From: Cymbomonas tetramitiformis
Lineage: Eukaryota; Chlorophyta; Pyramimonadophyceae; Pyramimonadales; Pyramimonadaceae
Length of the DNA: 64,000 nt
Assembly (NCBI GenBank): GCA_001247695.2
Contig: LGRX02035200.1
Span: 1-64,000 of the forward strand
Direction of reading: 5' to 3'
Part shown: piece by piece, positions 2,269 through 64,000 of the stretch
Layout: every line of letters starts with the position of its first letter
Numbering within the stretch: position 1 is the stretch's first letter
Notes under the pieces: model-generated
What the model was told of the DNA's origin: nothing
The model's database searches: none
The model's input: the letters and a program-made list of their open reading frames with translations, nothing else
Position numbers and translations under genes: made by a program

Positions 2269-2292
2269 AATAGTAGGATTTGTCGACCGCCC

Positions 2293-2311
2293 TGACTGAT
2301 AGTATCAGTCA
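2293..2311. other. Perfect 9-bp hairpin after the methyltransferase stop
   Basis: TGACTGATA and TATCAGTCA are separated by one G, about 25 bp after the stop codon. It may be an mRNA 3'-end structure. The rest of 2312-2680 is AT-rich and holds no gene I can support. Confidence 0.4.
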
Positions 2312-2726
2312 TGCCTCGACGGTATAGGGTGAAAAGAACTCTACTCGTAAACATTTGAATAAAGAATGATACATGTATGCATATTTCGGTGTTTTCATTG
2401 TACGCATACTGCACTTGTCTACCGTGTTGCCTTTATGTATCCCTATTTCGCGCATAAATATCACTAAACCCTGATTTTTTTGAAATATATATAAATCCAA
2501 AAATGACATATGATAATGTCATTTTCATCGAATAGTGTGTTTCCACGCCATCGCCACTAACTGCTAACTTTGTTGTTTTTGCATCACAGGCTTTCTTCCC
2601 TCCTCTCTTTTTGGCACCCTCTTGGTGCTCCCGTTGTGAATTTTGATTGCTTGATTGCTTGTTATTCCCTGCTAGGGACTGCTAGTGTGTACCTTGCTTA
2701 TAGTTTTATCTTCTTTATTATTTAGC

Positions 2727-5700
2727 ATGTCTTCCACGCCGTACGCCACACCGCCGGTACTGCCGAGACGTTTGCTGACACACCCCCCAGGGGCGAGAAA
2801 ACGTCAGCTGAGATTTGGTGCTTTAAATGGCACGCCCACGCCAGCAAATGCTCCGGACACATCAGAATTAAACGTCTGCAACAATCTAGCGTGGGAGCTT
2901 TTGCGCAAGCCGGCGGAGTTCGATGCATTGCTCAGTGTCGTCAAGGGGAAATGTGTTGAGCCTGGAGAGTCTGCGAAAACCTGGAAGTTCACTAGCAACG
3001 AGAAAAATGCTCGTATGCTCTTGGACATCCTGGTTGAGCAACTCGATTCCAGGCTCAAACTCGTTCACCCCAAGATGGCATTGATGTTTGACTTGCAGAA
3101 CCACAGTCTGGAGGTTCCGCAGAAAGCGAATCTCCTGCTGTTGGAACTGCTTCAGTCGCTCTGCGCAGGAGACGCCTTGCGTATCCTGCGCAAAGCTGAC
3201 AGACTCTTCCCAGGGGATGGGAAGATCGCACTCGTTCATCTCGTGAGGCATGTTGTGCCCGATCACGAGGAGTTCAGCGCTGCGGACTTCCTATTCGCTG
3301 GCGACAGAGTGGACTTGAGGGCTGGCCAGGATCCAGCAGACTACATTGACGTGTTCCAGACATCTCTGGACACCATTGAGTCTGACTTGGGTCCTGGGTG
3401 CACCGTTGCTATCTCCGAGAAAGCACGGATTGCACTGTTTCTCCGTAGGATCTGTCCCGTCTTTTATAAGGCGGTGCATGATGCCTACACAGAGGAGAAG
3501 CTCGATGCCGACTCCTCGCTTTCCTTGCTGACCTGTTTCCGTGAGACACGGGCAGTGCACAGGAACGCGGGGACGAAACTCAAGTCACCACTAACGGCTG
3601 CTTTCTATAATGATGCAGGTTCGCATCACGGCGGAAGCCGTGGTGCACATGGCCGCAGGGGAGTCCCTGACCGCTCCTCATCCCGTCAGTACATTCCGCC
3701 TCGTCGCTCTAATCCTTTTAAGGGGATTGGCTCTGGTTATTACCGTGCAGGAGTCTTTCCCCGCAAGAGTGGTAAGACAGGCGGTAAAGGAAAGCAGAAG
3801 ACCGGCAAAGGCAAGGGCAAGGGGAAGTCCCGTGTCGTCTTTGATCGGCAGACCCAGCAGTTCCGAGGGGAATGCTGGACCTGTGGGTCAAAGGGGCACA
3901 GGGCTGCCGACTGCCCGAAGCTGATGTCGGCTCATGCTTTCCATCTAGACCCGAAGCTGCTTGCGGAGCATGCTCGGACGGAGATTCTAGCTGCCCAGTA
4001 TCAGACTGCCTACGAGGAGTCTGAACAGGCGCTAGAGTCCTTCTGTCTGTTGCACGGCACCCCAGCAGTTGTCGGGTACCAGGAGGACTCGTGCTCTGAC
4101 AGTGAGGGTGAGGAGAGTTCTCACTCCGCCAGTCAGGAGCACGGGGACTCCGATGAGTCTGACGACGATGGGGACTGGGACGGCCTCTCCGAGGCTCAAC
4201 AGCAGGAGTGGGACCGCTTACAACAACATGCGGAAGCCAAATTCCAAAAGTTCTGTGCACAGTCCGAGAATGTCTCGTTGTCACTCGGAAGAGTGCACTT
4301 CGGGATGTTCCGGACCGGCACAGAACAGAAGGCTTGTGACCCCTTTCCCACTCCCCCCTACTTGCTGCCTGACATCCCTGCTTCTGCACCTGCCTCTGCA
4401 CAGCACGATGCATCCGTCGATGTGTCACAGCACTCTGCGCAGTCCACGGCTACGGTGGTGCTTGCCTGCTGCAGGCAGTACCACTCCAGCCGGACACAGC
4501 AGGCACCGCACGGGTCGGCTCTTGTGGATCATGCTCCGCAGGACCGAGCAGACTCGTCGGTGGTGTCTGCTGGACTGTTTGCAGCACAGTGTGACTCACT
4601 GTCCCCACCCGTCCACCACACGCACACCGTCCCTGCACTCACAGAGACTTGCTCTCTGTTTGCAGGAATGACGGTGGTGCAGGGTGACGGTGAGGACAGT
4701 GACATGTGCACGGCACCGGCACCCACCGAGCACTCTTCCCCACACCACACTCACAGTGCATCTTTGTTGAGGGAGGGGTCACGGAGCAGTGCGGTGCCCC
4801 CGCCTGCTTCCCCCCTGTCTGCTCCAGGGAAATCCCTGGAGCAGGTTCACTGGGAGCGGGTGTGGGAGGAGGACTACAGGTCCCCTACCGTTTGCCACGG
4901 TAACCTTTTGCCATCAAAGAGTTCACTAGGAGCTAGGGGTGTAGCCCCTCTGGTGACGCCCCCGCCACCTGGCCCTCCTGACTTGTTGCTGTCTGATGCA
5001 GGCTCTGCCGTGTCAGTGTCCCCACCAGCCAGTGAGCACCGGGTGCACACTGGGGGCACTGACACGGCCACAAACTTTAACTCAATCAATCTCGGAGGTC
5101 GCCCTACAGAAGGGAGTCTCTCCCGCTCTTTCCTTCAGCAGTGTCCTCCTGTCCCCGCTCCGGTCCATGAGTCGCCTGACCTGGCTAGTGACACGCACAT
5201 GTCTGACACACAGGCACCACCTCCACCGCCACGGCGTGTCGGTAGAGGTGGTATCTCTATCTTCCGGTGTGCATTCATGTCCTTCGCCTTGTTCACTTGC
5301 TTCCTGGCAAGTGCCTCGGCGGAGGCCCTCTCAGCCGCAGCACCTGTTCAGGGAGTGTGGGACGGATTGACATTGTGTCAACCGGGGGGGGAGATGGGAG
5401 GTGGGCAAAGCAGTACTGCAGTCAGTCAGTACAGTCAATCAGTCCAGTCAGTCCAGTCAGTCCAGTCAGTTTGGTCTGGTGATGATGGATTGGTGGTTTA
5501 TCCGATGGTGGCTTACCTGATGGTGGCACTGGTGTCACTTCTGACTGGTCTGCCACCCGGCAGTGTTCCTCTGGTGCTGGTCCTGAGTATTCCTCTGGTT
5601 CCGACTGGTATTGGCAGTACGACTCTGGTCAGCACCGCCACTATGGTTATACTCGTGGCTCCGACGGTTCCCCACCAGACAGCTCCGCCCAGATCTGTCT

Positions 5701-6004
5701 CCTTCAGGCGCTTGAGAAGCGGCGCCAGAGGTACAGAGCAGTGTCAGCTCTGCTCCTGACAGCCTTCCTTGGCATGGTCCTGACATGTCTCTACCAGAGT
5801 GTCTATGAGGAGTTTCTCGTCGAGGCTCACTTTGAGGCTGGTCACCACCTGGCACCGATCTCCGCTGACTGCAGCCCTGTGACTCAGACTCCGCTCTACG
5901 GCGCCATGCAGTATGTAGGCGACACAGCTCTGGAGATGTGTACTGTACCTGGTTTGGGCTATTCTGTGCACCCCCTTCAGTCATCTTCTCCCAGGACCCT
6001 ATGA
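2727..6004 (+). pseudogene. gag: Copia-type Gag polyprotein with CCHC zinc knuckle and long Pro/Ser-rich tail
   Basis: The start is the ATG at 2727 (MSSTPYATPP); the longer frame upstream begins at a non-ATG codon. Order: helical capsid-like region (residues about 50-270), a Gly/Lys-rich basic stretch, one CCHC knuckle CWTCGSKGHRAADC (3873-3914), an acidic Asp/Ser segment, then a long Pro/Ser/His-rich region. A hydrophobic stretch (about 5262-5320) is followed by small residues resembling a signal-peptidase site. The frame closes at 5757, but coding clearly moves to the +2 frame by about 5515 and runs to TGA 6002 through a second hydrophobic helix (LLLTAFLGMVLTCLY). A G8 run at about 5385 and a CAGTC tandem array (about 5421-5470) are likely slip sites. 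Pol continues in yet another frame, so a further -1 step is needed before 6000, possibly at the C5 run near 5971. Confidence 0.7.
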
Positions 6005-6014
6005 TACATCTGTA

Positions 6015-6165
6015 CCCTACGTTTCTGGACGCGTGCAATACATCGTATTGAACACATATTGCAGGCATATTGCACGCGTATTGACAATAAATGTTCAATA
6101 CAATAAAAAATGTTACAATATGTGTGCGATATGCCTGCAAGCGCTCCAACATGTGTGCAACATAG
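6015..6165. repeat. Left terminal inverted repeat and first subterminal repeats of the CACTA element
   Basis: TIR similarity to the right end extends from 6015 to about 6080. Beyond it are CAATAT/ATATTG-type motifs spaced 10-25 bp, the pattern bound by transposase accessory proteins in known CACTA elements. Cut off by the LTR element at 6166. Confidence 0.8.
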
Positions 6166-6419
6166 TGCTGAAATCTGTATAGGCAGCCCTGACTGGGAGT
6201 CCCGGTCAGGCCCCTATGACAGATCCCTAGGACCAACACTGGACTGCTGACTGATCTGTAGGTTCGTACTGTGACACACGCTATGTCACAGGTAGGCTAG
6301 AGTCCGAGACCGTCCGAGACCGTTCCGGGTATATCTAGCTTAGGGTTTATTTATCTGACACGGTTTATCCACACGAGTACGGGACTTTCTGATATCTAGT
6401 GTACTTGGATATTCCGGTA
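6166..6419 (+). repeat. 5' LTR of the gag-only element
   Basis: Begins TGCTGAAATC and ends ATTCCGGTA; matches 9475-9728 with about four substitutions. Confidence 0.9.
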
Positions 6420-6817
6420 GGTCGTGGCCCCATCCACGTTTTCATTCCACTTGCTATCTTGGCCATGATTGGCTAAGCAGCCGCTTGAAGAGGTGGTGCG
6501 CACTTGCGCGTTTGGGTGCGACTAGGATTTGGACATGATTTTACGGTAGACGTCTTTTGCGGCTGCGAGTCATGGGCACCGCGCGTTGCTATTGCTCAGT
6601 TGTGGCAATGTTCATTTGCGTTGTTTTACCTGCCCTGATCCCGCTGGTTTACGTATTTTGGGCTGGTGATCCGGACACCTTCGACCACTCCGACTTTTGC
6701 AAGTGCCCCACGCTCTTTTCGCCGCTCCGCGCGTTCTGCCGTTACGTCATCTCTCCATTTCCGCCACAACACCCAAACGTGCTACCGCGCATCATCTTTT
6801 CTCTGGCTTTCAGAGGT

Positions 6818-9145
6818 ATGGCTACATCTACACGAGCTCGCAAACGCCTATTGAAGGACTCCGACTTGGACGCCTCTATACGGCTTTTGGATGCGGTTCG
6901 GGACACTCCGACCGCTAGCACTCCACCTGTGGTGCCCCCTGCTGTTTCCAGCAACTCCGACACCGCTGTCGCGTTGCGGAAACATCTTGTTGACCAACAC
7001 GCCGCTGTTGACGTGGTCTACAAGGGGAGGTTGCATCGGGCTTGGGCCAAGGGTATCCGCGAGGATATCCTTGGTTCCAAGAAACATCATTATCGTGGCA
7101 CTGACGACACCGACCGTCTCTCCGAGTTGGTGGTGCAGCTTCGGACCGAGTTTGAGTCCGCTGGGCTGGACTTGACCCCCTTTGACCTCGACGACCCCAC
7201 CTCTCTGGTTATCGAGAAGGTGAATGGGCTTCTCTATGACGTCTTGGCCCTCGTCGTGGAGAGGAACTCTGTGGCCGACACCTGGCTTCGGGGTACGGAC
7301 TCTTCAGCTGACCGAGATGGACGTCGGGCTCTCATCGACATCATCAAGGGGAGCGTGCCGGCGTTCTTACGCGAGAGCCACCAGCAGGAGCACGCAGCGC
7401 TTCGTTATCCCGCAGGCGTTGACCCGCAGCCGATCTTGGCTCGTGAGCAACGTCTGGTGCGGGATAACCGCGCTCCTGACTGGCGGCCCACCGACGAGAC
7501 CCGCAAGCTCTCGTTGTACAACCGCCTCGACCCGGTCTTCTACGCGGCGGTGAAGGTGCGTTATCCGCTTGCGGGTGACCTCGGCGGAGTTACTCTCCGC
7601 TCGCTACAGGCTCTCGTCGTGGCCATCTTCCAGGCATGGGCACAGTCGGACGAGGGGGCGTCGGCACGTGAGAAGCAGGTGCTGGGGATGGACGGTAAGC
7701 CCTCCGCGCTGGTCACGTCGTCGGAGTACGCGGTGCTCCTCGAGGAGATCGCGGCCTTAAAGGCCTTGGTGCGAGGTGGCCGTGCGGGCGGGGGACAGCA
7801 GCCGCAGCCGCAGCATCGGGGGAAGCAGCATCCGAGGGGGTTTCGCGTGGGTGCAGGCAGCCCCCCCGCGGTCGGCTTTGACCGCGACAGCATGAGAGCG
7901 AAGCCGCTGTGCCACCGCTGCCGCAAGGCCGGTAAAGGTGAAGTATATCGCCCGTATCGCGACTGCCCGCTTGGCGGTCGCCAACACTCACCAGCCACGG
8001 CCGCGGCTTTCTGCATTCCCATTGAGCAGGAGGACGCGGAGGGCCTGCACGCATTGGCGCTCGTGCAGGTCTTCCAGGACGCGGCGGACAGTGGGCCGGA
8101 GGCCTTCTCGCATGCGGCATTGGCGTATGGTCCGCCCGCGGTGCTCTCCGCGGACGGCGTCGGTGGGATCGACGTGGCGGCCTACGGATTCAGCGTGCCG
8201 CCTCCGCCTTCTGGCGGGACCGACGACGAGGACATCTTGCGGCGGCTTGATGCCCTCACCTCTGAGGTTCAGGCCGCCCAAGAAAAGGTACATTACACTC
8301 ACGCATCCTTTGTTCCTGGGAGTGCGGTTGAGGAGCATGCGTCGGCTTTGGTGTGTGGCCCTGCCGCTGCGGCGGGGATCACACCGAAGGGGCAGGTTCC
8401 GGCAGGTGGTGCGGCGGTATCGGCGTCCGCCGTGCCGGCCCCTGCTATGCCTGTTTCGCAGGCGAAGGATGTACGGCCCGCGCCAGTTCAATCGGCGCGG
8501 GTAACCACCACAGAGGCGACATGCGGTGAGTTCGGAGGCTTCGTGCAGACGGTGAATCACGCCGCCGTCCACCCCTCTGACCTGACAGGCTATGACACGG
8601 ACGACTACGAGGATTATGCCGACGGTACTTTCGCGATTAAGCCGCGGGCTCCGTCCGGTGCTGTCGGATGCGGTGTGCCGCCTTTCGGCTTCGGCACTCC
8701 GGCGATCGGCGCTCTCGCGGTGCTCTCTCTGTTGTGCATTTCTTTTGCAGGTGTATCTGCTTCGGCGTCCACAGCTTCTGCTGTGTCGGCATGTGCACCG
8801 GCTACGGAGGTGCCTTCGCCTGGTGGTGATCTCGATTGGGTGGCTCCGTCATTTTACTCTACGAGTGATTTTGTTGACTCCGTGATGCCGGCTCGGGATC
8901 TCTTGTTAGCTGGCGGTTTACCACAGCTTCAGCCGCCCGAGCCTCCTGACACTTTGAGCCTGCTAGCATTTCAGGATTTAGCTCAAGCGGACTTGGGCTT
9001 TGACATGGCATTCTACTACGGCATGGCCTTACATGAGAGCGGTCCTCTTGATGCGGGGCACTACTACGGTGCTGGTTTCTTTACCTCCTATTATGGGATG
9101 GACTTCCGTGAGGCCACCGCTGACTACTTTGACACTGTCGATTGA
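6818..9145 (+). CDS. gag: Gag-like protein of the gag-only LTR element
   Basis: About 775 residues from ATG 6818 (MATSTRARKRLL); an in-frame ATG at 6572 would add a hydrophobic leader (MFICVVLPALIPLVYVFW), so the true start is unsure. Order: helical capsid-like region (to about residue 320), a Gly/Gln-rich basic linker, a Cys-rich CHRCRKAG...RDC segment (about 7912-7970) that looks like a degenerate zinc knuckle, then a long Ala/Pro-rich tail. Near the C-terminus a hydrophobic helix (IGALAVLSLLCISFAGV, about 8707-8757) is followed by small residues, mirroring the same feature in the outer element's Gag. The frame is uninterrupted, unlike the rest of the nest, so it may still be expressed. Structural-protein identity is inferred from layout, not from a sequence match. 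Confidence 0.7.
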   Translation: MATSTRARKRLLKDSDLDASIRLLDAVRDTPTASTPPVVPPAVSSNSDTAVALRKHLVDQHAAVDVVYKGRLHRAWAKGIREDILGSKKHHYRGTDDTDRLSELVVQLRTEFESAGLDLTPFDLDDPTSLVIEKVNGLLYDVLALVVERNSVADTWLRGTDSSADRDGRRALIDIIKGSVPAFLRESHQQEHAALRYPAGVDPQPILAREQRLVRDNRAPDWRPTDETRKLSLYNRLDPVFYAAVKVRYPLAGDLGGVTLRSLQALVVAIFQAWAQSDEGASAREKQVLGMDGKPSALVTSSEYAVLLEEIAALKALVRGGRAGGGQQPQPQHRGKQHPRGFRVGAGSPPAVGFDRDSMRAKPLCHRCRKAGKGEVYRPYRDCPLGGRQHSPATAAAFCIPIEQEDAEGLHALALVQVFQDAADSGPEAFSHAALAYGPPAVLSADGVGGIDVAAYGFSVPPPPSGGTDDEDILRRLDALTSEVQAAQEKVHYTHASFVPGSAVEEHASALVCGPAAAAGITPKGQVPAGGAAVSASAVPAPAMPVSQAKDVRPAPVQSARVTTTEATCGEFGGFVQTVNHAAVHPSDLTGYDTDDYEDYADGTFAIKPRAPSGAVGCGVPPFGFGTPAIGALAVLSLLCISFAGVSASASTASAVSACAPATEVPSPGGDLDWVAPSFYSTSDFVDSVMPARDLLLAGGLPQLQPPEPPDTLSLLAFQDLAQADLGFDMAFYYGMALHESGPLDAGHYYGAGFFTSYYGMDFREATADYFDTVD

Positions 9146-9474
9146 CTTCTTGCTCACTCTGGAGGCACACCAACATGGTGGTGTGCAGAACTCCTGTGAC
9201 CTCAAAGACTTCTTCAATCTGGTTTATGGTTTTGCTTTGACACCTTTGAAATCTTCAATTTGACTTGCTGGCACAGAGCCTTTCAGTAGTTTAGCAGGAC
9301 CTTAATTGCCTGTGAGTTTCTGCTCTTGTGCTAGCTAGAGGGTTCTAATTTGTGTATCAGAATTGCACAGTTAGATTAGCAGTTGGACTTGTCACCTAGC
9401 TCCTGCCCTAACACTTACAGCCTTACATTTTCTGACTCTCCTAGCCAGTCACCACCCACAGTGCTGGGGTGGTG

Positions 9475-9728
9475 TGCTGAAATCTGTATAGGCAGCCCTG
9501 ACTGGGAGTCCCGGTCAGGCCCCTATGACAGATCCCTAGGACCAACACTGGACTGCTGACTGATCTGTAGGTTCGTACTGTGACACACGCTGTGTCACAG
9601 GTAGGCTAGACACCGAGACCGTCCGAGACCGTTCCGGGTATATCTAGCTTAGGGTTTATTTATCTGACACAGTTTATCCACACGAGTACGGGACTTTCTG
9701 ATATCTAGTGTACTTGGATATTCCGGTA
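9475..9728 (+). repeat. 3' LTR of the gag-only element
   Basis: Second copy of the 254-bp LTR. Preceded by the G-rich GGGGTGGTG tract and followed by the target duplicate CATAG. The 330 bp between the gag stop and this LTR hold no gene. Confidence 0.9.
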
Positions 9729-17245: not shown

Positions 17246-17949
17246 TAGTGCCTCTGTACACATTTGATATACCTGTAATATACCAGATACGTATTGCGGA
17301 CATATTGTAAGTATTATGCAATATGTGAGCAGCAGGGGGGTCTTACCCCTTTACCCCATGCAGTCATGTGTTGCATAATTCACTCTGATTGTAGACATAT
17401 TGCACATGTACTAAAGATATTCTGCATGAGGGAATGTTTCAATATGTGTTCAACACATATATTGCAAACGTGTTGAATGATTCATCTGATTGTAGACATA
17501 TTGCACATGTATTGAACGATTCCTTATGCGTGAATGTTTCAACATGTGTTCAACACATGTTCAATACGTGTGTTGCAGGCGGTTGCAGACATATTGAACA
17601 CCCCTCCAATCGTTTTGCCTTATTTCAATACATCGGGGCCCCAATTCAAAAAGCCCCCCAGAACCGACTTCTGCGATACGCGTCCAAATGCCGTGAAAAC
17701 TTGTCCCCATAACGCTAGACCCTTCCTTAGATGATACCAAGTGCTAGTGGGTGAGTCTGGCACCATTTGGGTGCCCATGCTAGCATACTCATTTTCGCTG
17801 TGTCCAGGCTGATCGCGGTTCAATAGTTTGGCCAATATGTTACACGTGTATTGGAATATCCAGATATTAGCATACCGTCTTCAATATGCCTCCAATATGC
17901 CTCCAATACGTGTTCAACACGTGTATTGAACCCGTCTAGAAACGTAGGG
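17246..17949. repeat. Right subterminal region and TIR of the CACTA element
   Basis: Rich in CATATTGCACATGTA and TTCAACATGTGTTC motifs, some in tandem (about 17395-17530), ending in the inverted terminal repeat from about 17885. No coding except for short chance frames. Confidence 0.8.
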
Positions 17950-17952
17950 GTA

Positions 17953-20900
17953 CTCTATCACCAGTTCTGGCACTGATGGCATTGTCTGTGACTCCGGTGC
18001 AACCGGCAACATCACCGGGTCCAGACACAGGATCACTGACCTTGATACCAGCAGGACCATATCCTTCAGTACAGTCATGACTGGACCCGCCTCACGGACT
18101 GATGGCACGGGCACACTGAGATTGATCGGCAGAGACATACTGACTGGTGACATTGATGAGTACTGCATTCCTGGCTGCCATTTCAAACACGGCGCCAAAA
18201 CTCTCCTGTCAACCCGAGTTATGCTCCGGGAGGGTTTCTCATCACCTGACTTCATCAGTATGACATATACCCATCTTGACTCTGGTCGGACATACTCTAT
18301 CATTGATGATGGCACAGACTACCTTTGGGCAGAGCCAGAGTCAGCAGATGTCAGCTTTCAGGCCTTTCAGGGCAATAAGAAGAAACACAAATCAGGGGAC
18401 CCATCCGACTGGATGTGGGCCAACAGTCAGTACAGTGCCTGGGCTACTACTCATGGGTCTCCTACGGCTACGGCCGAGCTGGGGGAACCAGCCTTTGATG
18501 TCTCCATGTTCGGCGACTCTCTCCCAGTCGGAGAGGGTAATAACCACCCTGCTCTGCAGCACTATCACAGTCAGAACAGTATATTCTCCGTCCAGTTGAC
18601 TGGTTATTACTTCTATGCTAATCCGCCATTCTCTATATCTATTCTGGACCGCATTTTCACTAAAGGCAATGCTGATTTTCCTCTGGACCCTCATAATACT
18701 GTATATTTCTGGATAGTTCCCTATATGCCATCCCACCGGATCTGGCATAAGACCTGTACTATGGAGGTATTACATATCTGGCCCACTGGTACTACAGGGT
18801 TATTCAGCTATCTTGGGAAACACACATACACCTCTACACACCCTCTCACCCCAGCTGGTTCTGACGGTGGACCTGGTCGGGTCTTCATCGATGGCACACC
18901 CTTTCCCATCTGCATCCTCTACCGAGACCGCCACACCCCGATCAGGGTCAGTCCTCCTGTTGAGCTGCATGATGCTCTCGGGCATGCTTCGATGACCCGT
19001 ATCCTCCGTCTCTACGATATGCCAGGGGTAGACTTGGGCAGACCACAGTGTTCCAGAGCAGCTCTTGCTTCACTTACCACTTGCTCTCAGTGGTGTGCAG
19101 TCTGTGCTACGACGGGCCTCAAACAGAAACCAGCCCCGAGCAGAGACCGACTCCGTACCAGTCAGCAACAGCCAGCCCGGAAATGGGCCTCAGACATGAC
19201 AGGCCCCATCTCACCCATTGGCTACAATGGGCACAGATACCGTATCCACTTCATTGACATCTCCACCAGATACCTATTTGTGTTCACCGTTGCCTCTAAG
19301 GCAGACTACTACGTATGTCTCCTGAGATTCATTGGCTATACCAGATCCCTCTCCTACGGCATTGATGAGCTATTCTTGTCCACCTCTACAGTCTCAGACT
19401 CCGAGATGGTGCTGAGGACTGATTGTGCACCTGAGATGGCAGATGCCAAATGCCGGGCAGCCTATCAGCAGCATGGCATTATCCACCAGACCTCTTCTCC
19501 CACAGTCCATACGGACAATCCCTATGCGGAGAATGTCACTGGCATCCTGTCCCGTATGATCCGGTCCATCCTTACAGCTTCTGGACTCGACCTCAGCTAC
19601 TGGCCGCTTGCGGCTAAGCACGGTGCCTTGTTGTGGTCCATTACACCACACAAGGAAGTGGTGACTACTCCTATCCACACTATGACAGGTCATCACTTTC
19701 AGTACCGTCGTCTCCGTGCATTTGGTGCACACTGCTATGTGGTTATGGACAGTCAGCAGAGGAACAGCAGACAGCCAGGCATCTCATCAAAACTTCAGAA
19801 CGGATCATGGGCAGGCCGTATGGTTGGTATCTCTATGGGCTCTAATGCCTACAAAATCCTAGATGCCACCGACGGCACAGTACACCTTGTGGGCAAGCCA
19901 CACTGGATACCTACTTATGAGCACCTGGGCAGATCTATGTCAGCATTTCCAGACACTATGGCAGCTGACATACAGGTTGATGCTACCTTTGTCAGGCCAT
20001 CTCCCTTCTCAGAGACACTCGACTGTACCTATGCCAGCATCATCGGGATCAGCTCATACTACTGCACTTCCGACCGACAGTCTTACGGCTGTGTGCTTCT
20101 CTCTGTTCCGTCGAGGGACAATACCTGGACTGACGTGGTACATTATGTCAAGTCCACACCCGACGGTACACACTACAGACACCTGCTGGTGTATGTCGCA
20201 CACTATAGGAAGACCGTCTCGGTCAATGAGCACTATCCGATCTGGACAGTTGTCAGAGCCCGAGAGAGCCGCAGGCGCCCATCATATGGCGCTATCATTA
20301 TCTCCACCGATAGAGGCAGCAGCACACCTTATGGTGTAATATTTGAGCCTACTCCCGAGTCTACCTATGGTTGGCATATGGACCTTCCTGCTACCCTCGT
20401 CAGCTTTCCGTCCACCCATGCCGCCGCCTTCCTTCCCTTCTCCGATGATCCAGCAGAGATGTCCGCCCCGAGTACATTCCACAGCAGTACACCTCAGCTG
20501 ACAGCTTCATCAGATCAGGACCCAGAGAGTTGGTGGTGCACATGTTCAATATTTCTGCACCCCAGCTCAAACCAGTCCATGGTGTCAAGCAGGCACTTTC
20601 CACCCCAGAAGCAGTTCAGTGGCAGGAGGCTATGGATGCCGAAGTGGCTGGTCTGGCCGCCGACAATAAAATGGTCCCGGGGCACCTTCCCTCGGGTACC
20701 AAAGGCCTGACCACTCTCTTTGTGTTTTCCAGACCCTTCAAACCAGACCCCTCAGCACCATCCGGCACACGGCAGATCTTCAAAACCAGACTGTGTGCTA
20801 ATGGTAAGCAGACATACGGCTACCTTCCGTGGGAGACCACCTGTACCACAACTCAGCTTTATGCCTTCAGACTGGCCTTCATCTTCGGCAGCATCTTCAG

Positions 20901-23071
20901 TCTGAAGATGAGCCACTTCGATGTCTCCCAGGCCTTTATGAATGCTAAGCTGGATGTTCCAGTATGGGTATCATTCCCAGGTGGTTACACCTATCAGGGG
21001 TTCGGTGGTGCTTTACTGTACTATGCACTGTATGGCCTTAAGGTGGCCGGTGCTTCCTGGCAGAGACTGGTTAAGATATTCATGCTCAGCTTTATGTTCG
21101 GCGATGTGACATTCAGACAGTCCTCTCATGATGACTGTATATACAGTAATCACTCAGTTATAAGGAACTCCTATGCTAAGGAACCCAGCCAGCCTTTCGG
21201 GGAAGGAGTACAGGTTGATAAGGAAAAGCTGGCTGGACTTTTTTTGTTATGGAATCACCCTGAAATAAGAAATATGGTGTTGGCTGCCTATCTTAAGGGG
21301 CATTTCATACATTTCATATATATTAAGAAATCTAGGCTGGAAATTTTACCAAAATGGTGTGGACAAATGCTATTTTTATCAGATTTTTTAATAAAACTCT
21401 GCAAAAATCAAGGCACAGTGCAATATGATGCTTAGGTTCATACGACACTACAACATTATACATTCACCCAGAAAGGCTAAGTCCTGCTTTAATTCTTTCA
21501 ATTGTGCACGACTCTCAGGGTCCATTTTCTAGGTTTTGAAAATTTTAAGAAATGTGGCTGGCTATGTACGGATGGCACGTGGATGGCTATGGAATATGCT
21601 GGCTGGCTTAAAAGATCGCGGTCACTATTCTTAGCAGATTCCATAGGACGCTGGCGCTGGCCAGGGGGGCGGGGGGTACCCAAGTTGATGAGAAAAGCTG
21701 GCTGACCTGGAATTTACGGTTTTCTTATAGGTGGGTGATGCGTATTTCATCTACACTGATTTGGTCAAGGCCATGTGTGTTGTCTATGTGGATGACTTCA
21801 TTCTGGTCGCCAGTACAGAGCTTGAGGATGCCTTTTGGGCAGCATTCAGAGCCAGGTTTCTGGCTAAGCATCTCGGAGAGGTCACCTCGGTTCTCCAGAT
21901 GCGAGTCAGGCAGGATCAGCTTGGTATCTACCTTTGCCAGTCCAGACAGATCAAGGACTTGATTGCCAACAACAACATCACAGCTCATTCCTACAGGACC
22001 CCTATGGACCCGAAGCTCATCATCAAGAAACCAGCAGATCCAGACCTGTCCCTTGTCCCCAGCTACAGATCTATCCTCGGCTCACTGCTATGGCTGGCCC
22101 GTGGCTCACGACCTGATTGCTACTATCCTGTAATCTATCTGGCTCAGTTTGTATCATGCCCTTCTGAGGAGTCCATGAAGGCTCTTATCAGAATTGCGCA
22201 GTATATGGACAGCACGGCTCAGTATTCTCTGGCATTCTACTATCCCGAGACTCCGGTCAAGGTCATCACCATGTTCTGTTATTCAGATGCTGACCTGGCC
22301 AGGGACTTAGAGAATGATGCCCGGTCCTATTTTGGCTCCGTGATATTCCTGGCTGGTATGATCTTGCAGTGGCACTCAGGGAGGCAGACCATTACTGAGG
22401 TCTCCTCCACAGGGTCAGAGTATGTTGCAGCCAGTACGGCAGCTCAGCGGTTGGTGTCACTGATGTTTATGCTCACTGAGATATTTGGTTCTATTACTCA
22501 CCGTATTGATACCCAGCAGCCCCTTGATTCCGATCTTGACCACGCCATTCAGTACCTTGACAGAGCAGCTACAGACATTCACTTTGACATGCCTTCCCTC
22601 CAGACATCCTCAGTGCTCAGGCGTCTGCTTGAAAAACAAAACAAGCCAGCAGACGGCCTGACCTCAGTTCGCCCAAACTCTCCTACAATTCCTGATGAGC
22701 TCAGTACAGATGAAATCAATCCCCTCAGATTCCAGAACAACCGAAACAGAGAGTATATCAGTACAGCTTCAGCTCAGCCCCGCCTGGAGTTACCTATTCC
22801 CCTACTACTGGATAATGATGCATGCAGATCTATTGTTGAGCATCACCTCCTCTCCGAGAAGGTGAAGCATGTGATTATCAGATTTCATGTTCTCCGAGAC
22901 TTTGTCAGATTGAACTGGATTCGGTGTGCCAGAGTCCCATCACCTCGGAACCTGGCAGACCCTTACACCAAACCAGTTCCTCCAGTCAAGGACATGCAGC
23001 CCTACTTTATCCAGATGTTCCAGCAGTATATGGCCATGGGCAAGGCTCAGGCTGCAGTTATTCAGAAATGA
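17953..23071 (+). pseudogene. pol: Copia-type Pol: protease, integrase, reverse transcriptase, RNase H
   Basis: Protease: CDSGATGNIT with the DSGA motif at 17990-18001. Pre-integrase: HDALGHAS, then C-x2-C. Integrase: Asp in KWASDMTG, Asp in RTDCAPEM and Glu in NPYAENVTG form a likely DDE set. RT: FDVSQAFMNAKLDVPVW, then YVDD at 21785-21796. RNase H: YSDADLARD, WHSGRQ, SSTGSEYVA; the copia C-terminal ADPYTKPV follows. Breaks: a frame change at about 20520-20540, and a 574-bp insertion or intron (21157-21730) between DDCIYSN and YVDD. The frame entering from Gag also differs. Motif residues are intact, so this was a functional element, now disabled by the CACTA insertion and indels. Confidence 0.85.
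21157..21730 (+). other. 574-bp intron or spliceable insertion inside the RT domain
   Basis: Copia RTs have only a short loop between the two blocks it separates. Reading TCA/GTTATA to TTATAG/GTG removes 574 bp, restores frame and gives a normal loop length. Other phase-0 donors are 21208 (GTACAG) and 21214. TTATA stands at both edges, as a 5-bp target duplication would, but simple excision on that basis leaves the frame broken. GTTGAT...AAAAGCTGGCTG occurs near both ends (21214, 21684). Not recognised as a known element. Confidence 0.55.
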
Positions 23072-29535: not shown

Positions 29536-32500
29536 CTATGTTATCGTGTCGCCGGATGAGGGGATTGGTGTTCTCTTCATCGGATGTTGCGAGTACCAAT
29601 AATTGACGGTGATATTTCTTCCTACCCCGGAGACAAAATGATACCTGGACCCGTTCCATCCCCACACCCATTGTCGGCTATCTCTCCCCCCTCTACTGCT
29701 CCCTTATGCCCACTCTTCATCATGCATGTGCATGGTTGTCGCTTCTTCTCATGAGACAATCCACTTCAGCCAGTAGGTTTGACGATGTAGACGCAAACGC
29801 ACATCTCATTGTGCGCTAAACCATACTTTGCACGGGCACTATGTGGTGATCGTACTTGATTATCAATATACTATGAACACACTCATTGATCGCATCACAA
29901 TAATATCGATGATTTGAGTTATCATCGGGCAATGCCACCCTCTTGGGTGTCTAAGCCCCCCTCGCGCGGTATAACATCCGTCGTCAGTTTGAGAGGAAGG
30001 CCCGGAATGCGGAATGGACTCTGTCGAGTGGAGTTGGATAAGTATCGGGGAGACACCCCCGACTGCATGTGGTCATAGAGTGGCGTGTGCTAGTTCGCTA
30101 TGGAAGTTGAGTGACCATGCATTTTGTTGACTTGTTGCGCGGAGCGAACATGGTTAGAGATTGCACTGATGCTATCCAAAATCGGTTTCGGAAAACTTAG
30201 CCGAAAGAACACAACTCCAACTTTCTTCTTTTCTTTTCTCTATCCACCTTCCGCTTAACATGCTTGTTTCGTGTTTGGGACTTTGGCGAGTGGTGGCAAA
30301 TGAAGTCCTATTCATCTTGTTATCACACTTATCTGCCTTAGCAACCATCTCAAATGCCCCATCGAATACAAGGCGAATTCAGGTGAAGGTGAAATTGCTA
30401 GAGGTTTTGCCTCATGGAATACTAGCTACGCATGAAGTTTCTATTTGCTAAAAGTAAAAGGAACAAGGCCGAATGGCCGTGCTGGTTCGTAGCGATTTGC
30501 GCCACTGTGCATTGACGCGCGACGGCATGTGAAATTCTATCCCGACTAAATCGGAAGTCGCGGATTCCGAATAAACTACTAAAATCACTGAAGCTCCGTT
30601 AACATAAACATGGTTAAATTGGAGCCTGCGGAATTTTAGAGGTTTCTGTGCCGGTAGATCGATCTGAGTGTCCTGAGCCGTTAGATCAAATCAGCAGCTG
30701 AGTTAGATCTAAAGGCTTTACACACGACAGTATTTAGGAGTTCCGCCCGTGGGAATCCGCAGCTCTGTTCTTTTGCCTTCGAGGATGGTGACAAGGAGGA
30801 CCTGGACATGAGCAAGGAGAGGTATGAGGTGCTCCCGGCAGCGGTGCAGGAGGTGACTAGCTGGGATGCGGCGCTTCAGGAGCGCTGGAGAGGGGAGCTG
30901 GGGGACAGCTCACTCACTGAGCTGGCAGTGCAGATGCAGGGGGCAGCATTGGGCGGCAAGACGGTGGGCAACTACCGGCCGAAGGCTCGGGCCTTCATGG
31001 CGTTCTGTGAGGCGGAGGGCAGACAGTGGCTTCCGGCAACGGGGGCCACGGTGAGGCTGTACATTGCTCACATGCTGGACAAGGGCACGGTGCAGGCGTC
31101 CAACATGCAGCCCTACCTGTCCGCCATCAACAACTACCACGAGGACATGGGGTTCCCCGGGCCTGCCAAGGGCCGGGCGATCTCCAGAGCAGTGAAGGGC
31201 ATGGCCCGCCTCCAGGTGCAGACGGCTGAAGCCGCGGGTGAGGAGCAGACGGTGCGGACCTGGCTGCCTGCCAAGCATGTCTCGGCGGTGCATGCGCACG
31301 GGCTGGGGCTGGAGCCGGTGGGCCGGGCAGCTACGGAGCTGCTCAGGGCGTGCACCTACGTGGTGTTTGCCTTTGTCACCTTCGGCCGGCCAGAGACGGG
31401 CGTCTCCATGCGCAGGGGGCACATCAGCATCACAGGTGATGACATCTCCGTGGTTCTCCACAAGGAGAAGGGCAGGGGGCACGTGCGCCTCAGGAGGAGG
31501 CTCACCATCCCCGCAGCGGGGGTGGCGGGGCTTGTGCAGCTCCTGCAGCACTGGCAGCAGGTGCGGGATGCCTGTTGGGGGCATCGCCCGGTGACGGGCT
31601 CGGAAGTGCAGGGCAGCTACTGGAGGCTGCCGTGGGAGCAAGGAGCTCCAGCCGGCGCAAGCTAATGGCTGGGTGCAGTTGGCATTGGGGAGGCTGGGGT
31701 GTGTCCCTCCGGAAGGGGGACACTTCTCTGGCCACAGCACCCGCAAGGGGGCTTGTACCTGTGCCAGGGTTGTGGGCGCGGCGCTTGAGAAGTGCTGCTT
31801 CCTGGGCGGCTGGTCTCAGCTGTCCTCTGCCATCCACTCCTACATTGACCCGGCAGCTGTTCCCGACGAGCACATGGAGAAGTACTTCGGGTGGACCACT
31901 CCGAGATGGCGACAACAGCAGCAGCGGCAGCCTGGCACAGAGCAGTGTGCCTAATGATCTCTGTTACATGGCAATGAGATGTGAAGAGCAAAAGAAATGG
32001 TTAAATTGGAGCCTGCGGAATTTTAGAGGTTTCTGTGCCGGTAGATCGATCAGAGTGTCCTGAGCCGTTAGATCAAATCAGCAGCTGAGTTAGATCTAAA
32101 GGCTTTACACACGACAATATTTAGGAGTTCCGCCCGTGGGAATCCGCGGCTCTGTTCTTTTGCCTTCCCTACCCACCCAACCCAGAAGACTTTAAACATT
32201 TTGCCTTAGAAGCTGTGCATCAGCCTAAAAAGCATGTGAAGCTGTGAATCAGCCTAGAGAAGACATACCAAAAAGAGATTTTCTCTCACACACTTAAAAG
32301 CATGTAAGAAGAAAGCTATTTTTAATGAAATGCTATGCAGTGTGCCTGTTGGCAATGAGATGTGAAGAGCAAAAGAAATAATTAAAACTAGTATCGTGTG
32401 TTGCGCACAATCGTAATTATTATATACCACACACCGCCACATGCACAAATTGCACGCCTTAAGACAATATGAACGTCACAACGTATATACAAAACGACAT

Positions 32501-35500
32501 GGAAGCTAACCAACTTATTCTATCAAGGAAGCAAGTGATTCTTATAGTATGGACTGAGCAAGGCAGCACCGAGGTCCAATTTTTGGGATCGGAGGGACTC
32601 AGGTTGTGGCAAGTTTAGAAGGCACATACCAGAAGCACGGAAGGTAGAACACATCTCCTTTGTGTAACGTAACATCTACATGACAGGCATGCCTGGCCGA
32701 TACCCAATGGTTCCAAACTTCACCACATAGAATTTCATATCCACATGGTGAGCGGCACGCGCGTAAAACGGCAATACTCCAACGAAACGCCTTTCGCAAA
32801 CTCCGACGACTCAGTAAGAAGCACACCTTATAAGTGGAAACTGCTCCTTCACATCGTAAGCCGCAAAATCGACCGCAGAATATTTGAACAGGCTTCCATC
32901 CTGCGGCTCACTCACATCCATTCAGCTCTAGGTACTCTGGAGTTTAGAGGCTAAACGTGAATGCCATGCGCGTCATGGCATCGACTCGAGGTTGGGGCAT
33001 CGGCATACAACGAAGTTTGCTACTCTCATGCATGGGATGCACTTGATGGTAAGGGTAAGGTGGTAAGGGTAAACAAGCTTGGCCGGCTAGGTGGATTTTC
33101 ACACATACAAGGGTACTTCTACCTAGTTGGGATAAAAATATATTCATTGGATAGTAGGAGAAAGGCATCATTCAGCTTGGCCGGCTAGGTGGATTTTCAC
33201 ACATACAAGGGTACTTCTACCTAGTTGGGATAAAAAATATATTCATTGGATAGTAGGAGAAAGGCACCATGAATGATCACCCAACCTGTCATAATCATTT
33301 CACCCGACCTGTCATAGTCATTTCACATTAGACCCGAGGCTATTTAGCACCACCAGGTACACGCATCACCTTGGGGTAGAGAAGATCATCGCACGATGGA
33401 TGATACAATCTGAGCTTCTTGGTACCATCGATCACGCAAATGAAGTTCTCATGGCTGCGCGGGAACACCACCCATCGGAGAGACCATGAGCAAGGTATAT
33501 GGCCAGCACAGCGCACCTCGCGGAGTCTGCAGTGCTTGCTGGGAGCCGCTTGTGAGAAACCGTGCGATTTGCCAGCTTGTCTTTGTAGATGTAGGCATAC
33601 ACGTGGACTACCAATTTGAACTTGAATCAAGTATTGGGAGCGACGTGTGTGACAAAGTCGAGACTTGAAGATGCATATACAGAGGGGCTTAATGCCCAAT
33701 TGGGAATCACTGCCGGTTTGTGAGGGGTCGGTGAGGGGCTTGAGAATTGAAGTTAGGCTAAGTTTGTCTCGTCGAGCACACGCCAGACCAACCAAGTTCA
33801 CACCAAAGACACATGCGAGTCCATGGCAGATCGGGTAAATGAGCCTAAACTCAGGTTATTTGGATTATTTGTGTTGGTCACGATTCCGTCGGCTCAGAGT
33901 TGGTACCTCATATTGGGGAGGCTCAAATACTTCCATGACAGCTTCCACAGGGTTTCTTATACAAATCACTGTAAAACTCACCAAGGTTTCAACCAGAATT
34001 AAATTATGGTATGCAGTACATTCACCACAGAGCTAAAACAAGACCGGAGAGCATGAAGACATCGGACCCTTATAAATCATTTGATGCAAGCCGTAGGCGC
34101 AAAAAGAAGAATGCTGATCACGGCCATGTAAAGTGCCAAGCTGTCCCATGTTCTACGTATTTCCGCGTAGCAAATTGTCAGCACAGCGAGTACGTATACC
34201 GCGGAGCGAATACGCGATAAACCAAAAGTGGAGCTCGAATAAAGGTCCGCCAAGCACAATTGCAAATAGCTTGAGCGGCCGCTGCTCATACTCACCCATA
34301 CGCGCGTTGACACACAGCTTGAAAACCTACGAGTCGGTCCAGCGATCCCTTTTTGCTGGACCTCTCATGGTATGCCGGTAGTGACAACCGACGATACAAA
34401 TTTCCTAGGCATCTCGAGGCATAGTGGCAACGAATGTGAGTTAGTTCGGATTTGCTTGATCTCTCGAGACGAAGCCGTGCTCAGCTGTATTATGGATGAG
34501 AAATGGTTCGTGCACTGATCACTGCAAGCACCCCACTCATGGAGCACTGTTGCCGGAATCTCTCCCAGAGTTTATGCTTTGATTTGAGATCGGTTCAAGC
34601 ATAAAAAAGCTTACAGGTGTGAGTCAAAGCAAGGGAGGCTCAAGTATCGTGCGTGAACATACGGGTCGTAGTGTAAGGGAGTGCTGTCGCCATCCCCTCC
34701 CCAATACATAATGGCACCTCCAGCTACTGCAACACCTACAACCGCCTGCGGGACGCGTGCCATGCTCACCCATTGCACACACCCACCCGGCCCCATCAAG
34801 CGGGATGATGCCTCGTGTCTGCACCGCTCTCTTACAAGCTCCGCCCCTCGCTCCCTCAACCGGACGCCTGCAAAGAGGCCCGCAAGGGGTTGCGAGGAAG
34901 CTTGTCTCTAAAGTCTAAACTCAGGTTACATCAGCAAACCCGATTCGAGAAGTACTTGGGAATCTCTCGGGTGGATTATCCTGCCGCTTTCTACATCGCT
35001 TCATACTATGGGCGGCCCCTCTCATTCCTCATCTCTGAGCGAGGTTCAGAGCCGGAAAACGAGAGCACCATTCATCAACCACAGCGCAGTTCACAGAGAG
35101 ATGAATCGTGTTTTCACTACCACGTGATAGGTGGGACCCCATACCGCATATTCCAAGTAGTCTGGAGGAGGCACCTCGGTCCCAATATACTCCAAGTCTG
35201 CTTGTGCCTGCAGCGATCACGGTCTCACAAACGCAGCCACCCTGTAGCATATGGAAAGTCCAGTTGTAGCAAAAGCAGCAGAAAGGAGTGCGGCTTATGC
35301 CGGGAGTATTGATGCTGCAAACCTGAATTGGGATGCGAGCGGCGTAGCAACTACCCGGCTCTTCGGCAGCTCGGCGTACATATTCTACCACAGACATCTC
35401 CTCGGTCTGCCGTTCCCGAGGGAAAACATAAGCGAAAGCCAGAGAAAAATACAAGATGATTAAGCATCCTATGCGCGCAGCCGTGCATTTTCAACACCAT

Positions 35501-51226: not shown

Positions 51227-51892
51227 TGATACGGCGGGATAAACAGGCGCCGTGAATATATTATCAATATACAAATAAACACTGCAAAGTTGGACAGCAA
51301 TGCGAGTGTACGTAATAGCGGGTTGTGAGTGCAGTCTCTGTAAGAAGATCTGCTGAAGCACAACGCTTCCTCACTTTTGTACCATACGTCTCCCATCATC
51401 TTAGATGGTACCGCCATTGGGTTGTGAACCCGAGACGTAGGTTGAACGACCAGTATTGTAATAACGACTAGTTCGTTCATACTGTGCATGCGTGTTCCGC
51501 ACATGCTTAAAAGCCAAGATGGTTCTTGTTTGTATTCAAGATGTATCTTTGCTTTGCCATCTTCGAGTTCGACGTACGAACTCTCGATGACAAGGATGCC
51601 TGATGATGTGACATTATCATCTGGCGACATGTACAGTCATCGTCGACCGTACTGACGACTGTCATAATAATATATGACGCGACTCGACATGTACAGTCAT
51701 GGTCGACCATACTGTCGACTGTCATAATAATATATGACGCGACCGACTGTCATAATAATATATGACGCGACCGACTGTCATAATAATATATGACATGACC
51801 GACATGACATGACATGACATGGTATGACATGTCTGACAGGTATGACACGTATGACATGTATGACACATATGTCATCGGTCATGACCCTGACA
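51227..51892 (-). repeat. 3' LTR of the large element
   Basis: 666 bp; contains a tandem array of CGACTGTCATAATAATATAT (three to four units) and TATGACATG repeats. One array unit more than the other LTR. Confidence 0.9.
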
Positions 51893-60735: not shown

Positions 60736-61377
60736 TGATACGGCGGGATAAACAGGCGCCGTGAATATATTATCAATATACAAATAAACACTGCAAAGTT
60801 GGACAGCAATGCGAGTGTACGTAATAGCGGGTTGTGAGTGCAGTCTCTGTAAGAAGATCTGCTGAAGCACAACGCTTCCTCACTTTTGTACCATACGTCT
60901 CCCATCATCTTAGATGGTACCGCCATTGGGTTGTGAACCCGAGACGTAGGTTGAACGACCAGTATTGTAATAACGACTAGTTCGTTCATATTGTGCATGC
61001 GTGTTCCGCACATGCTTAAAAGCCAAGATGGTTCTTGTTTGTATTCAAGATGTATCTTTGCTTTGCCATCTTCGAGTTCGACGTACGAACTCTCGATGAC
61101 AGGGATGCCTGATGATGTGACATTATCATCTGGCGACATGTACAGTCATCGTCGACCGTACTGACGACTGTCATAATAATATATGACGCGACTCGACATG
61201 TACAGTCATGGTCGACCATACTGTCGACTGTCATAATAATATATGACGCGACCGACTGTCATAATAATATATGACATACATGACCGACATGACATGACAT
61301 GACATGGTATGACATGTCTGACAGGTATGCCACGTATGACATGTATGACACATATGTCATCGGTCATGACCCTGACA
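60736..61377 (-). repeat. 5' LTR of the large element
   Basis: 642 bp; differs from the other LTR by loss of one about 26-bp array unit and a few substitutions, so insertion was recent. Confidence 0.9.
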
Positions 61378-61382
61378 TACGG

Positions 61383-61989
61383 AGTATTAGTACAGCTATA
61401 TGCCAGTGACTCACGGAGTGTCACATCCAGCATATTTTGTCTGCGGTTGGCTATTACCCGGCAGTTGAGTACTCTCTTGAGTACCGCAGGAAAATAAGTT
61501 GAATGGCCATTAGACTCGACTGTAACACCCTTTTCTGAGCCACGGTCAAAAAACGTACATGGTAATGGCATGCGGAACTTTGGCGAAATTTGAAATGGCA
61601 AGACGGACTGTGCGACTTTTAGATCTGCGTAAGATTGACGGCAGATGCAGGGGCGGAACTTTGGCGAAATTCAGGGCGAGGAGGATAGGAACGTCGGATC
61701 TTGCCTAGTCACGATGCCGAGTTAATCGTGGTGTCGAGGGACTTCGTCATGGTTTCACAAACACGAGTTCCCTGAATTTCTGCAATGGTTCGGAACAGGT
61801 CACTTTGTCATTTTTGGGACGAAAGATTTGCTTCGCGTTTCAAAGATTCACCTCTCGCAGTCGCAAACGCTGAACGCCATAGTCAGCAGTGCCGTTCGTA
61901 AGTTATTAAGTATGGAAATCTAGGTTATTGGCTGCCCGCCCCCACTTTGTTGCGCTACTGCAGGCACACCCGCTTGTGATTTTAATCAC
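61383..61989. other. No gene recognised
   Basis: Flanking sequence of the large LTR element. GCGGAACTTTGGCGAAATT occurs twice (61573, 61653). No coding evidence. Confidence 0.4.
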
Positions 61990-63321: not shown

Positions 63322-64000
63322 GAACAGACTATTGGGAATAAATGAATCTCGATCGTCGTCTAAAAACCTTCATTTTGACACAATTTTCGTCGTCTAAAAG
63401 TTATTGCCACGTCATCTGAAATGTGCCACGTAAGCGACACGTAAGCGACACGTAAGTCGTCCCGCATTTTTTATTACAAAATATTACTCGAATTATTTGT
63501 TTGTGCATGATGCTTTCGTACTCGGCGAGTCCCGGTAGATCTTTTTGTTGCATTTTTGTTCATATGCGTGCATATCATGTACAAGTATGCAAATATGGGT
63601 ACATCCATGTGCAATTTAGGCCAGCATGCACGGTACACGTTTATGAATGTGCGTATTCAGGTGCTTCAATTCCCGTAAAATAAGTTGCAACTGAGATGGG
63701 TACTAGCATATGATACACAAATCTATATCATCATACAAATTTATTCAAAATACACCAAATATTTGTCTATGATGTCTTCTAGGCAAGAGATTTCGATCAT
63801 TTCACAGTGCTAAGGCTATTATATTGCTGATACATTGGAATCTATATCTTCAATCCACAATTATTTGCGGGACTTGTAGGTTTTAATTCCCTCGATAGCG
63901 AGGTAACGTTGACGGCAATGTTGAAGCTCTATCGGAGAACATAAATGGCAGAGTTTTATTGGTCAAGGCAATTGCATCGCACGCAATATAGGTCGATTTC
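63322..64000. other. No gene recognised
   Basis: AT-rich. A short GCGACACGTAA repeat (63433-63453). Nothing else supportable to the window edge. Confidence 0.4.

What the first reader, a model, noticed from the sequence alone, without database searches (positions are those of the whole stretch)
30610..32379. Tyrosine-recombinase element with split direct repeats but no reverse transcriptase
Seen: A1-ORF-B1-A2-B2 with 171-bp A repeats and about 45-55 bp B repeats. Known: this plan belongs to Ngaro/PAT/DIRS retroelements, which encode RT. A recombinase-only element with it is either a deletion derivative or a DNA transposon moving through a circular intermediate.
Basis: partly seen in the sequence, partly recalled or inferred. 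Interest (0 to 1): 0.75.

Follow-up and report, generated by a model that had tools for sequence, protein, structure and literature searches.

The report
Internally deleted PAT-like algal retrotransposon
This is a shortened copy of a common jumping element in a green alga: it kept its end repeats and a broken copy of its recombinase gene but lost its reverse transcriptase, so it is an ordinary relic and not a new kind of transposon.

Summary
In detail: the plan A1-recombinase-B1-A2-B2 is present at 30610-32379 with no reverse transcriptase (RT). The explanation is ordinary. In the window's own genome (851.7 Mb; by inference the prasinophyte Cymbomonas tetramitiformis), 39 of 39 other scored places match only from window position 30773 rightwards. 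Two longer copies fetched (L031, L032) carry A1, 3.1-3.2 kb more sequence and the same B1-A2-B2 end; in L031 an open frame encodes RT, RNase H and a Dam-like methyltransferase. The window copy is such a PAT-like (DIRS order) retroelement with 3,118 bp missing relative to L031, between A1 and the recombinase. The deletion junction occurs once in the assembly, so nothing shows that this short form multiplies. Its recombinase is also frame-broken. A second, different internal deletion (L035) was found. The right end is shared by relatives and no clear target duplication is seen, as expected for recombinase-mediated insertion of a circle. In passing: the parental recombinase carries an N-terminal Tudor-like domain; a 2025 paper calls another element the first reported Tudor-bearing transposon, so this family-level feature deserves more attention than the deleted copy.

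The parts
30610..30780 (+). A1, left terminal repeat (171 nt)
   Evidence: 98% identical to A2; same left terminal repeat in the longer copies L031 and L032
30771..30784 (+). Deletion junction: A1 joined to the 3' part of the Tudor-recombinase gene; 3118 bp missing relative to L031, with 2 bp shared (within an 8-of-9 match)
   Evidence: side-by-side sequences (the match was read by eye); 44-nt junction pattern found once in 851.7 Mb at up to 3 mismatches
30808..31665 (+). Tyrosine recombinase, first part: core-binding domain and start of the catalytic domain (285 aa; frame open from 30685)
   Evidence: PF02899 E 4.5e-4, just under its cut-off; Cre N-terminal domain, best E 5e-7 to 6e-6; 97% identity to P0001 over 98% of the query; open frame
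31643..31954 (+). Tyrosine recombinase, C-terminal catalytic part (H-x-x-R, W, Y motifs) in another frame; broken relative to P0001
   Evidence: tblastn of P0001: frame +2, 95% identity at 31643-31951
31942..31998 (+). B1, internal repeat (last 30 nt identical to B2)
   Evidence: internal B1-A2 junction present in all loci compared
31997..32167 (+). A2, internal copy of A
   Evidence: the AT at 31997-31998 is shared by B and A at the B1-A2 junction
32168..32336 (+). Sequence between A2 and B2, shared by relatives
   Evidence: 32168-32379 matches 29 of 29 relatives L002-L030 at 96.7-99.1%
32337..32379 (+). B2, right terminal repeat; right end of the element
   Evidence: 34 of 39 other scored places end their match at window 32378-32389, 32 of these at 32378-32381, and 5 stop earlier; the sequence beyond differs between copies, except that L019 and L022 share one flank

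Best explanation
A single, non-autonomous copy of a PAT-like (DIRS-order) tyrosine-recombinase retrotransposon that has lost 3.1 kb between A1 and the recombinase gene (gag-position region, RT, RNase H, Dam-like methyltransferase and most of a Tudor-like domain). The family most likely moves by transcription, reverse transcription using the internal B1-A2 stretch to join the ends into a circle, and recombinase-mediated insertion of that circle (mechanism inferred from the published DIRS/PAT model, not shown here). The deletion arose either by template switching during reverse transcription, before insertion, or by repair of a break after insertion; these cannot be told apart here. The copy kept the end repeats but encodes no whole protein, and has left no detectable descendants.
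For: 39 of 39 other scored places match only from window 30773 and so never show A1 joined to the recombinase (40 places scored of 2416 candidates). In 29 of 29 fetched relatives (L002-L030) the sequence left of the junction continues into the parental coding region: 27 over the whole 1400 bp tested, L020 over the last 0.9 kb and L022 over the last 0.75 kb. L031: A1 4092-4262, A2 8598-8768, B2 end 8980, 4889 bp in all; its frame 5210-7207 hits RVT_1 7.3e-15, Dam 7.2e-5, RT_RNaseH 6.8e-4 (only RVT_1 above its cut-off). L032: A1 4593-4761 and end 9604, 5.0 kb. Junction unique genome-wide, control 0. 847 matches to an A pattern genome-wide; of the first 100, the only ones listed, 31 same-strand neighbour pairs lie within 5 kb, 24 of them 4,625-4,872 bp apart (12 at 4,638-4,639) and 7 at 1,668-4,383 bp; the window pair is 1,387 bp apart. 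L035 (1,668 bp) is a different internal deletion with A1 and B1-A2-B2 kept. The window copy differs by substitutions from the 29 others by 1.1-1.9% and has private changes including the frame break. No clear target duplication.
Against: The Dam and RNase H matches are below Pfam's curated cut-offs. No RT or recombinase tree was made, so 'PAT-like' rests on structure and domains. Only 3 longer regions were fetched of 20 first asked for; one of them (L033) shows no A1, and L031 itself is about 130 bp shorter between A1 and A2 than the commonest spacing, so 3,118 bp is a figure relative to L031 (about 3,250 bp relative to the commonest spacing). L031's recombinase frame is itself broken. An assembly error at the junction cannot be excluded without reads. 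No empty site was found.
Confidence: 0.95

Rival explanations
1. A recombinase-only DNA transposon that excises and reinserts as a circle (Crypton-like) and acquired split repeats on its own.
For: Recombinase present, no RT, ends compatible with circle insertion.
Against: The junction is unique in the genome, the recombinase is frame-broken, and longer copies share the same ends and body at 97-99%, one with an RT frame shown. Cryptons lack long direct repeats (PMC3212892, passages).
Confidence: 0.01
2. A version of the best explanation: a trans-mobilised short derivative. The deleted form was itself copied by proteins of full-length relatives and inserted here already short.
For: It keeps A1, B1-A2 and B2; the family is numerous (847 A-pattern matches) and similar among the 30 copies compared (mean pairwise difference 1.3%); SIRE is a known short derivative of VIPER (PMC6681497, passage).
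Against: Single copy, so no sign of multiplication. Not distinguishable here from deletion after insertion.
Confidence: 0.3
3. Ordinary LTR retrotransposon with degenerate LTRs.
For: Two long direct repeats flank a coding region.
Against: A2 is internal and followed by 212 bp ending in B2, conserved in all 29 fetched relatives; a tyrosine recombinase instead of a DDE integrase; no clear target duplication in three complete copies.
Confidence: 0.01
4. Assembly artefact: A1 of one copy joined to the recombinase of another by mis-assembly or gap closing.
For: High-copy repeat in a fragmented assembly (25,745 contigs); junction seen once. L019 and L022 share one flank at 99% yet differ at the 5' side, so the assembly holds duplicated or allelic versions of a site.
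Against: A1 and A2 share a minority base, found otherwise only in L006 and L010 (= L032), as expected of one element; the flanks match nowhere else; a second internal deletion exists elsewhere (L035).
Confidence: 0.04

Closest known systems
PAT-like DIRS retrotransposons (Pat1 and unclassified PAT elements, chlorophyte families)
   Same: Split direct repeats A1...B1-A2-B2, RT-RNase H, methyltransferase-like domain and tyrosine recombinase in the parent; no clear target duplication. PAT-like families are reported in Chlamydomonas and Volvox (PMC3266345 passages; PMC8226300 passage).
   Different: The window copy lacks RT, RNase H and methyltransferase; the parent has a Tudor-like domain ahead of the recombinase, and no gag zinc finger was detected in the one frame scanned.
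Kangaroo of Volvox carteri
   Same: PAT group, green alga.
   Different: Kangaroo has an inverted recombinase and internal repeats between methyltransferase and recombinase (PMC4157794 passages); here the recombinase is in the forward orientation with the internal repeats after it.
Ngaro and VIPER
   Same: A1 at the 5' end and B1, A2, B2 at the 3' end (PMC6681497 passage).
   Different: They lack the methyltransferase domain (PMC4157794, PMC3266345 passages); the parent here has a Dam-like match, below cut-off.
SIRE, non-autonomous derivative of VIPER
   Same: A short derivative of a split-repeat recombinase retroelement lacking coding parts (PMC6681497 passage).
   Different: SIRE is described as a repetitive element; this junction is found once.
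Cryptons
   Same: Encode a tyrosine recombinase and no RT.
   Different: They have neither long direct repeats nor an RT-bearing parent (PMC3212892 passages; the second point is recalled).

Membership tests
PAT-like DIRS retrotransposon | Split direct repeats A1...B1-A2-B2 | tested here: met
   Window and longer copy L031
PAT-like DIRS retrotransposon | Reverse transcriptase and RNase H | tested here: not met
   Absent from the window copy; present in relative L031, RVT_1 7.3e-15 and, below cut-off, RT_RNaseH 6.8e-4. The window copy is therefore filed only as a deletion derivative.
PAT-like DIRS retrotransposon | Methyltransferase-like domain (separates DIRS/PAT from Ngaro/VIPER) | tested here: inconclusive
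   Absent from the window copy, whose deletion spans that place; L031 matches PF05869 Dam at 7.2e-5, 23 bits against a cut-off of 28.1
PAT-like DIRS retrotransposon | Tyrosine recombinase with R...K...H-x-x-R...W...Y residues | tested here: met
   These residues are invariant in 8 aligned relatives (assignment to the catalytic set is recalled); in the window copy they are spread over two frames
PAT-like DIRS retrotransposon | No target-site duplication | tested here: met
   Three complete copies with both flanks (window, L031, L032): none in window or L032; in L031 a 4-nt word recurs in both flanks but not flush with the ends
PAT-like DIRS retrotransposon | Groups with PAT elements in RT or recombinase trees | not tested
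   No reference PAT sequences were fetched
Pat1 subgroup | Zinc finger in Gag | tested here: inconclusive
   No Pfam match in the 172-aa frame scanned (L031:4668-5183); the gag-position region was not otherwise searched
Ngaro | No methyltransferase domain | tested here: inconclusive
   Sub-cutoff Dam match in L031 speaks against Ngaro
Crypton | Recombinase-only element without long terminal repeats | tested here: not met
   171-nt A repeats and an RT-bearing close relative
LTR retrotransposon | Terminal LTRs flanked by target duplications | tested here: not met
   The right end is B2, not A; no clear duplication

The most novel reading that the evidence does not exclude
The deleted copy belongs to a PAT-like retroelement family whose tyrosine recombinase carries an N-terminal Tudor-like chromatin-reader domain that steers integration to marked chromatin, as chromodomains are thought to do for some Gypsy integrases (recalled); the window copy is a natural deletion of most of that domain. 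This would be an independent capture of a Tudor domain by a transposable element and the first known to me in a tyrosine-recombinase element (held library searched only).
Probability: 0.4. Interest if true: 0.5.

Novelty: new member of a known kind. Interest (0 to 1): 0.2.

Why it matters
It documents an abundant PAT-like family (847 A-pattern matches) in what is most likely a prasinophyte. The broader interest lies in the parent: a Tudor-like domain fused to a retroelement's tyrosine recombinase would make chromatin-directed integration by such a recombinase testable.

Tried and rejected
Rejected: Crypton-like DNA transposon, LTR element, chance B repeats (see rivals). Viral contigs gave no relative of the recombinase: 3 stretches matched a pattern, none was confirmed (that tool may leave out the window's own genome). 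An empty site was sought with 102 nt joined from the two flanks: only the two halves at the window itself matched, 2 of 2 candidates. A count of copies with the undeleted Tudor-recombinase and A1-gag joints was not obtained. Structure prediction of the Tudor-recombinase protein was not available, so the Tudor fold rests on sequence profiles alone. One translation on the wrong strand was uninformative. Literature searches. The 4 papers listed for Cymbomonas plus transposable elements are not about its retrotransposons by title and start of abstract; their bodies were not read. Of six papers I saw passages only.

Full report
Observation. The plan A1-recombinase-B1-A2-B2 is real. A1 (30610-30780) and A2 (31997-32167) are 171 nt and 98% identical. 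B1 and B2 share an identical 30-nt end (31969-31998; 32350-32379), with a shorter out-of-register match upstream (read). No other copy of the element lies in the window, and no RT of this family does either. The coding part is a tyrosine recombinase: its N-terminal half matches the core-binding domain of phage integrases (PF02899, 4.5e-4, slightly under cut-off) and Cre-type recombinases (5e-7 to 6e-6). Against its closest relative P0001 it is split into two frames near 31645, so the copy does not encode a whole recombinase.

Host. The closest protein, 97% identical over 98% of the query, is CYMTET_7731 of Cymbomonas tetramitiformis, and every one of the 96 hits that is shown with an organism name bears that name; hits from EukProt, ENA and JGI show none. 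The window lies on contig C25018 of an unnamed 851.7-Mb assembly. That the two are the same species is my inference.

Relatives show the missing part. Searching the whole element in its own genome gave 43 match rows from 40 scored places of 2416 candidates. Apart from the window, 39 rows start at query position 174 (window 30773), that is, at the last bases of A1; 34 of them run to the right end and 5 stop earlier; the remaining 3 rows are fragments. In 29 of 29 other fetched loci (L002-L030) the sequence left of the junction continues into the parental coding region instead of A1: in 27 over the whole 1400 bp tested, in L020 over the last 0.9 kb and in L022 over the last 0.75 kb (a first, forward-strand-only look read 12 of the 29). 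I then fetched three longer regions of 20 first asked for. L031 (the same place as L003) holds A1 at 4092-4262, A2 at 8598-8768 and the end of B2 at 8980. L032 (the same place as L010) has A1 at 4593-4761 and its end at 9604, including about 115 nt that L031 lacks. L033 (the same place as L022) shows no A1 and shares only its last 2.35 kb with L031. In L031 the frame 5210-7207 encodes RVT_1 (7.3e-15), an RNase H domain (6.8e-4) and a Dam-like methyltransferase (7.2e-5), the last two below Pfam's cut-offs. The recombinase follows in the same orientation, with a Tudor-like stretch before it; L031's own recombinase frame departs from P0001 near its end, so I do not claim that L031 is active.

The junction. 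Side by side, L031 continues from A1 into its gag-position region, while the window goes from A1 straight into the 3' part of the Tudor-recombinase gene. The loss is 3118 bp relative to L031; by the commonest A1-A2 spacing (4,639 against 1,387 bp) it would be about 3,250 bp. The two breakpoints share 2 bp exactly, within an 8-of-9 match (read by eye); such short matches fit template switching during reverse transcription or end-joining repair (inference). A 44-nt pattern across the junction, with up to 3 mismatches, occurs once in the assembly: here (control 0). So there is no detectable family of this short form.

Shortened spacing elsewhere. A 28-nt A pattern (up to 2 mismatches) has 847 matches (control 0), of which the first 100 were listed. 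Among these 100, 31 same-strand neighbour pairs lie within 5 kb: 24 at 4,625-4,872 bp (12 of them at 4,638-4,639) and 7 at 1,668-4,383 bp. Two of the 7 were fetched. L035 (1,668 bp) is a different internal deletion: parent positions about 1-1302 joined to 4228-4888, ends kept. L036 (2,874 bp) is not a simple deletion: it holds the right end of one copy and, next to it, a second copy without its 5' part. The other 5 were not examined for cause.

Ends and insertion. In L001-L030 the last base of B2 is C in 15, T in 14 and A in 1 of 30, while the same position at the internal B1-A2 junction is T in 29 of 30 and A in 1. The right flanks differ between copies except L019 and L022, which share one flank at 99% over 199 nt and so are versions of one site; two other pairs share shorter, offset stretches. 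The left end has T before GG in all three copies with a known left flank. I read the variable base as lying at or next to the crossover, one side contributed by the circle and the other by the target (inference). No clear target duplication is seen in the three complete copies (a 4-nt word recurs near both ends of L031, not flush). The published model has DIRS elements insert as circles without target duplication (PMC3266345, passage). The joined flanks of the window copy match nowhere else, so no empty allele was found.

Age and lineage. The window copy differs by substitutions from the 29 others (L002-L030; L031-L033 left out as repeats of L003, L010 and L022) by 1.1-1.9% over the 3' 1.6 kb and has 9 private differences, 7 substitutions and 2 single-base gaps. 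A1 and A2 differ at 3 of 171 positions and share a minority base found otherwise only in L006 and L010 (= L032), consistent with A1 and A2 belonging to one element.

Classification. Split direct repeats plus a methyltransferase-like domain define PAT elements within DIRS, while Ngaro and VIPER lack the methyltransferase (PMC4157794 passages). The recombinase is forward, unlike Kangaroo. I file the parent as PAT-like on structure, untested by trees, and the window copy as its deletion derivative. Cryptons lack long direct repeats (PMC3212892 passages).

Side observation. P0001 (433 aa) and unnamed relatives from ENA/JGI contigs at 50-73% identity begin with about 50 residues that look like a Tudor domain. 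Against Pfam all such matches are below cut-off: P0001 matches PF21743 at 5.3e-4; of 8 further proteins scanned, 5 match PF21743 with E below 0.01 and a sixth at 0.046; P0016 matches only the related Agenet and Tudor_5 models, and P0024 matches none of them. A profile of 8 relatives matches the solved chain 7de9 at 2.5e-10 over positions 8-58. A 2025 paper on Ectocarpus states of a Gypsy element that it is, to the authors' knowledge, the first reported transposable element with a Tudor domain (PMC12477816, passage). The deletion in the window copy removes most of this domain. What the domain does here was not tested.

Noticed in passing
P0001 residues about 8-58; L031 5020-8661 frame; mostly deleted in the window at 30771-30784: Tudor-like domain fused ahead of the tyrosine recombinase in the parent family and in unnamed ENA/JGI relatives; a 2025 paper calls another element the first reported Tudor-bearing transposable element.
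   Followed up: partly
L035 160-2210 (C741): A second, different internal deletion derivative of the same family, about 2.05 kb, keeping A1 and B1-A2-B2.
   Followed up: partly
L001-L030 right ends: The last base of B2 is C (15), T (14) or A (1) of 30, while the internal B1-A2 junction is T in 29 of 30, suggesting that the crossover lies at or next to this base.
   Followed up: partly
L019 and L022: Two copies share one right flank at 99% over 199 nt, but L022 matches the parent only over the last 0.75 kb left of the junction site: versions of one site, one of them altered on its 5' side.
   Followed up: no
window 17948-23071: Remains of a Ty1/copia-type retrotransposon: integrase core (below cut-off), retroviral SH3-like and RVT_2 matches in successive frames.
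   Followed up: no
window 1114-9728: Large open frames (384, 1027 and 868 aa) with a sub-cutoff DNA-methylase match and a zinc knuckle, and a 255-nt direct repeat at 6165-6419 and 9474-9728 (98%); possibly another retroelement.
   Followed up: no
window 51227-51526 and 60736-61035: 300-nt direct repeat, identical, 9.5 kb apart, with a second repeat pair at 51793 and 61278; could be ends of a further element.
   Followed up: no
window 61989-62140 and 63171-63322: 152-nt inverted repeat, 93% complementary, around a tandem array of about 173-nt units.
   Followed up: no
window 33076-33270: Tandem duplication of about 98 bp to the right of the element, copies nearly identical.
   Followed up: no
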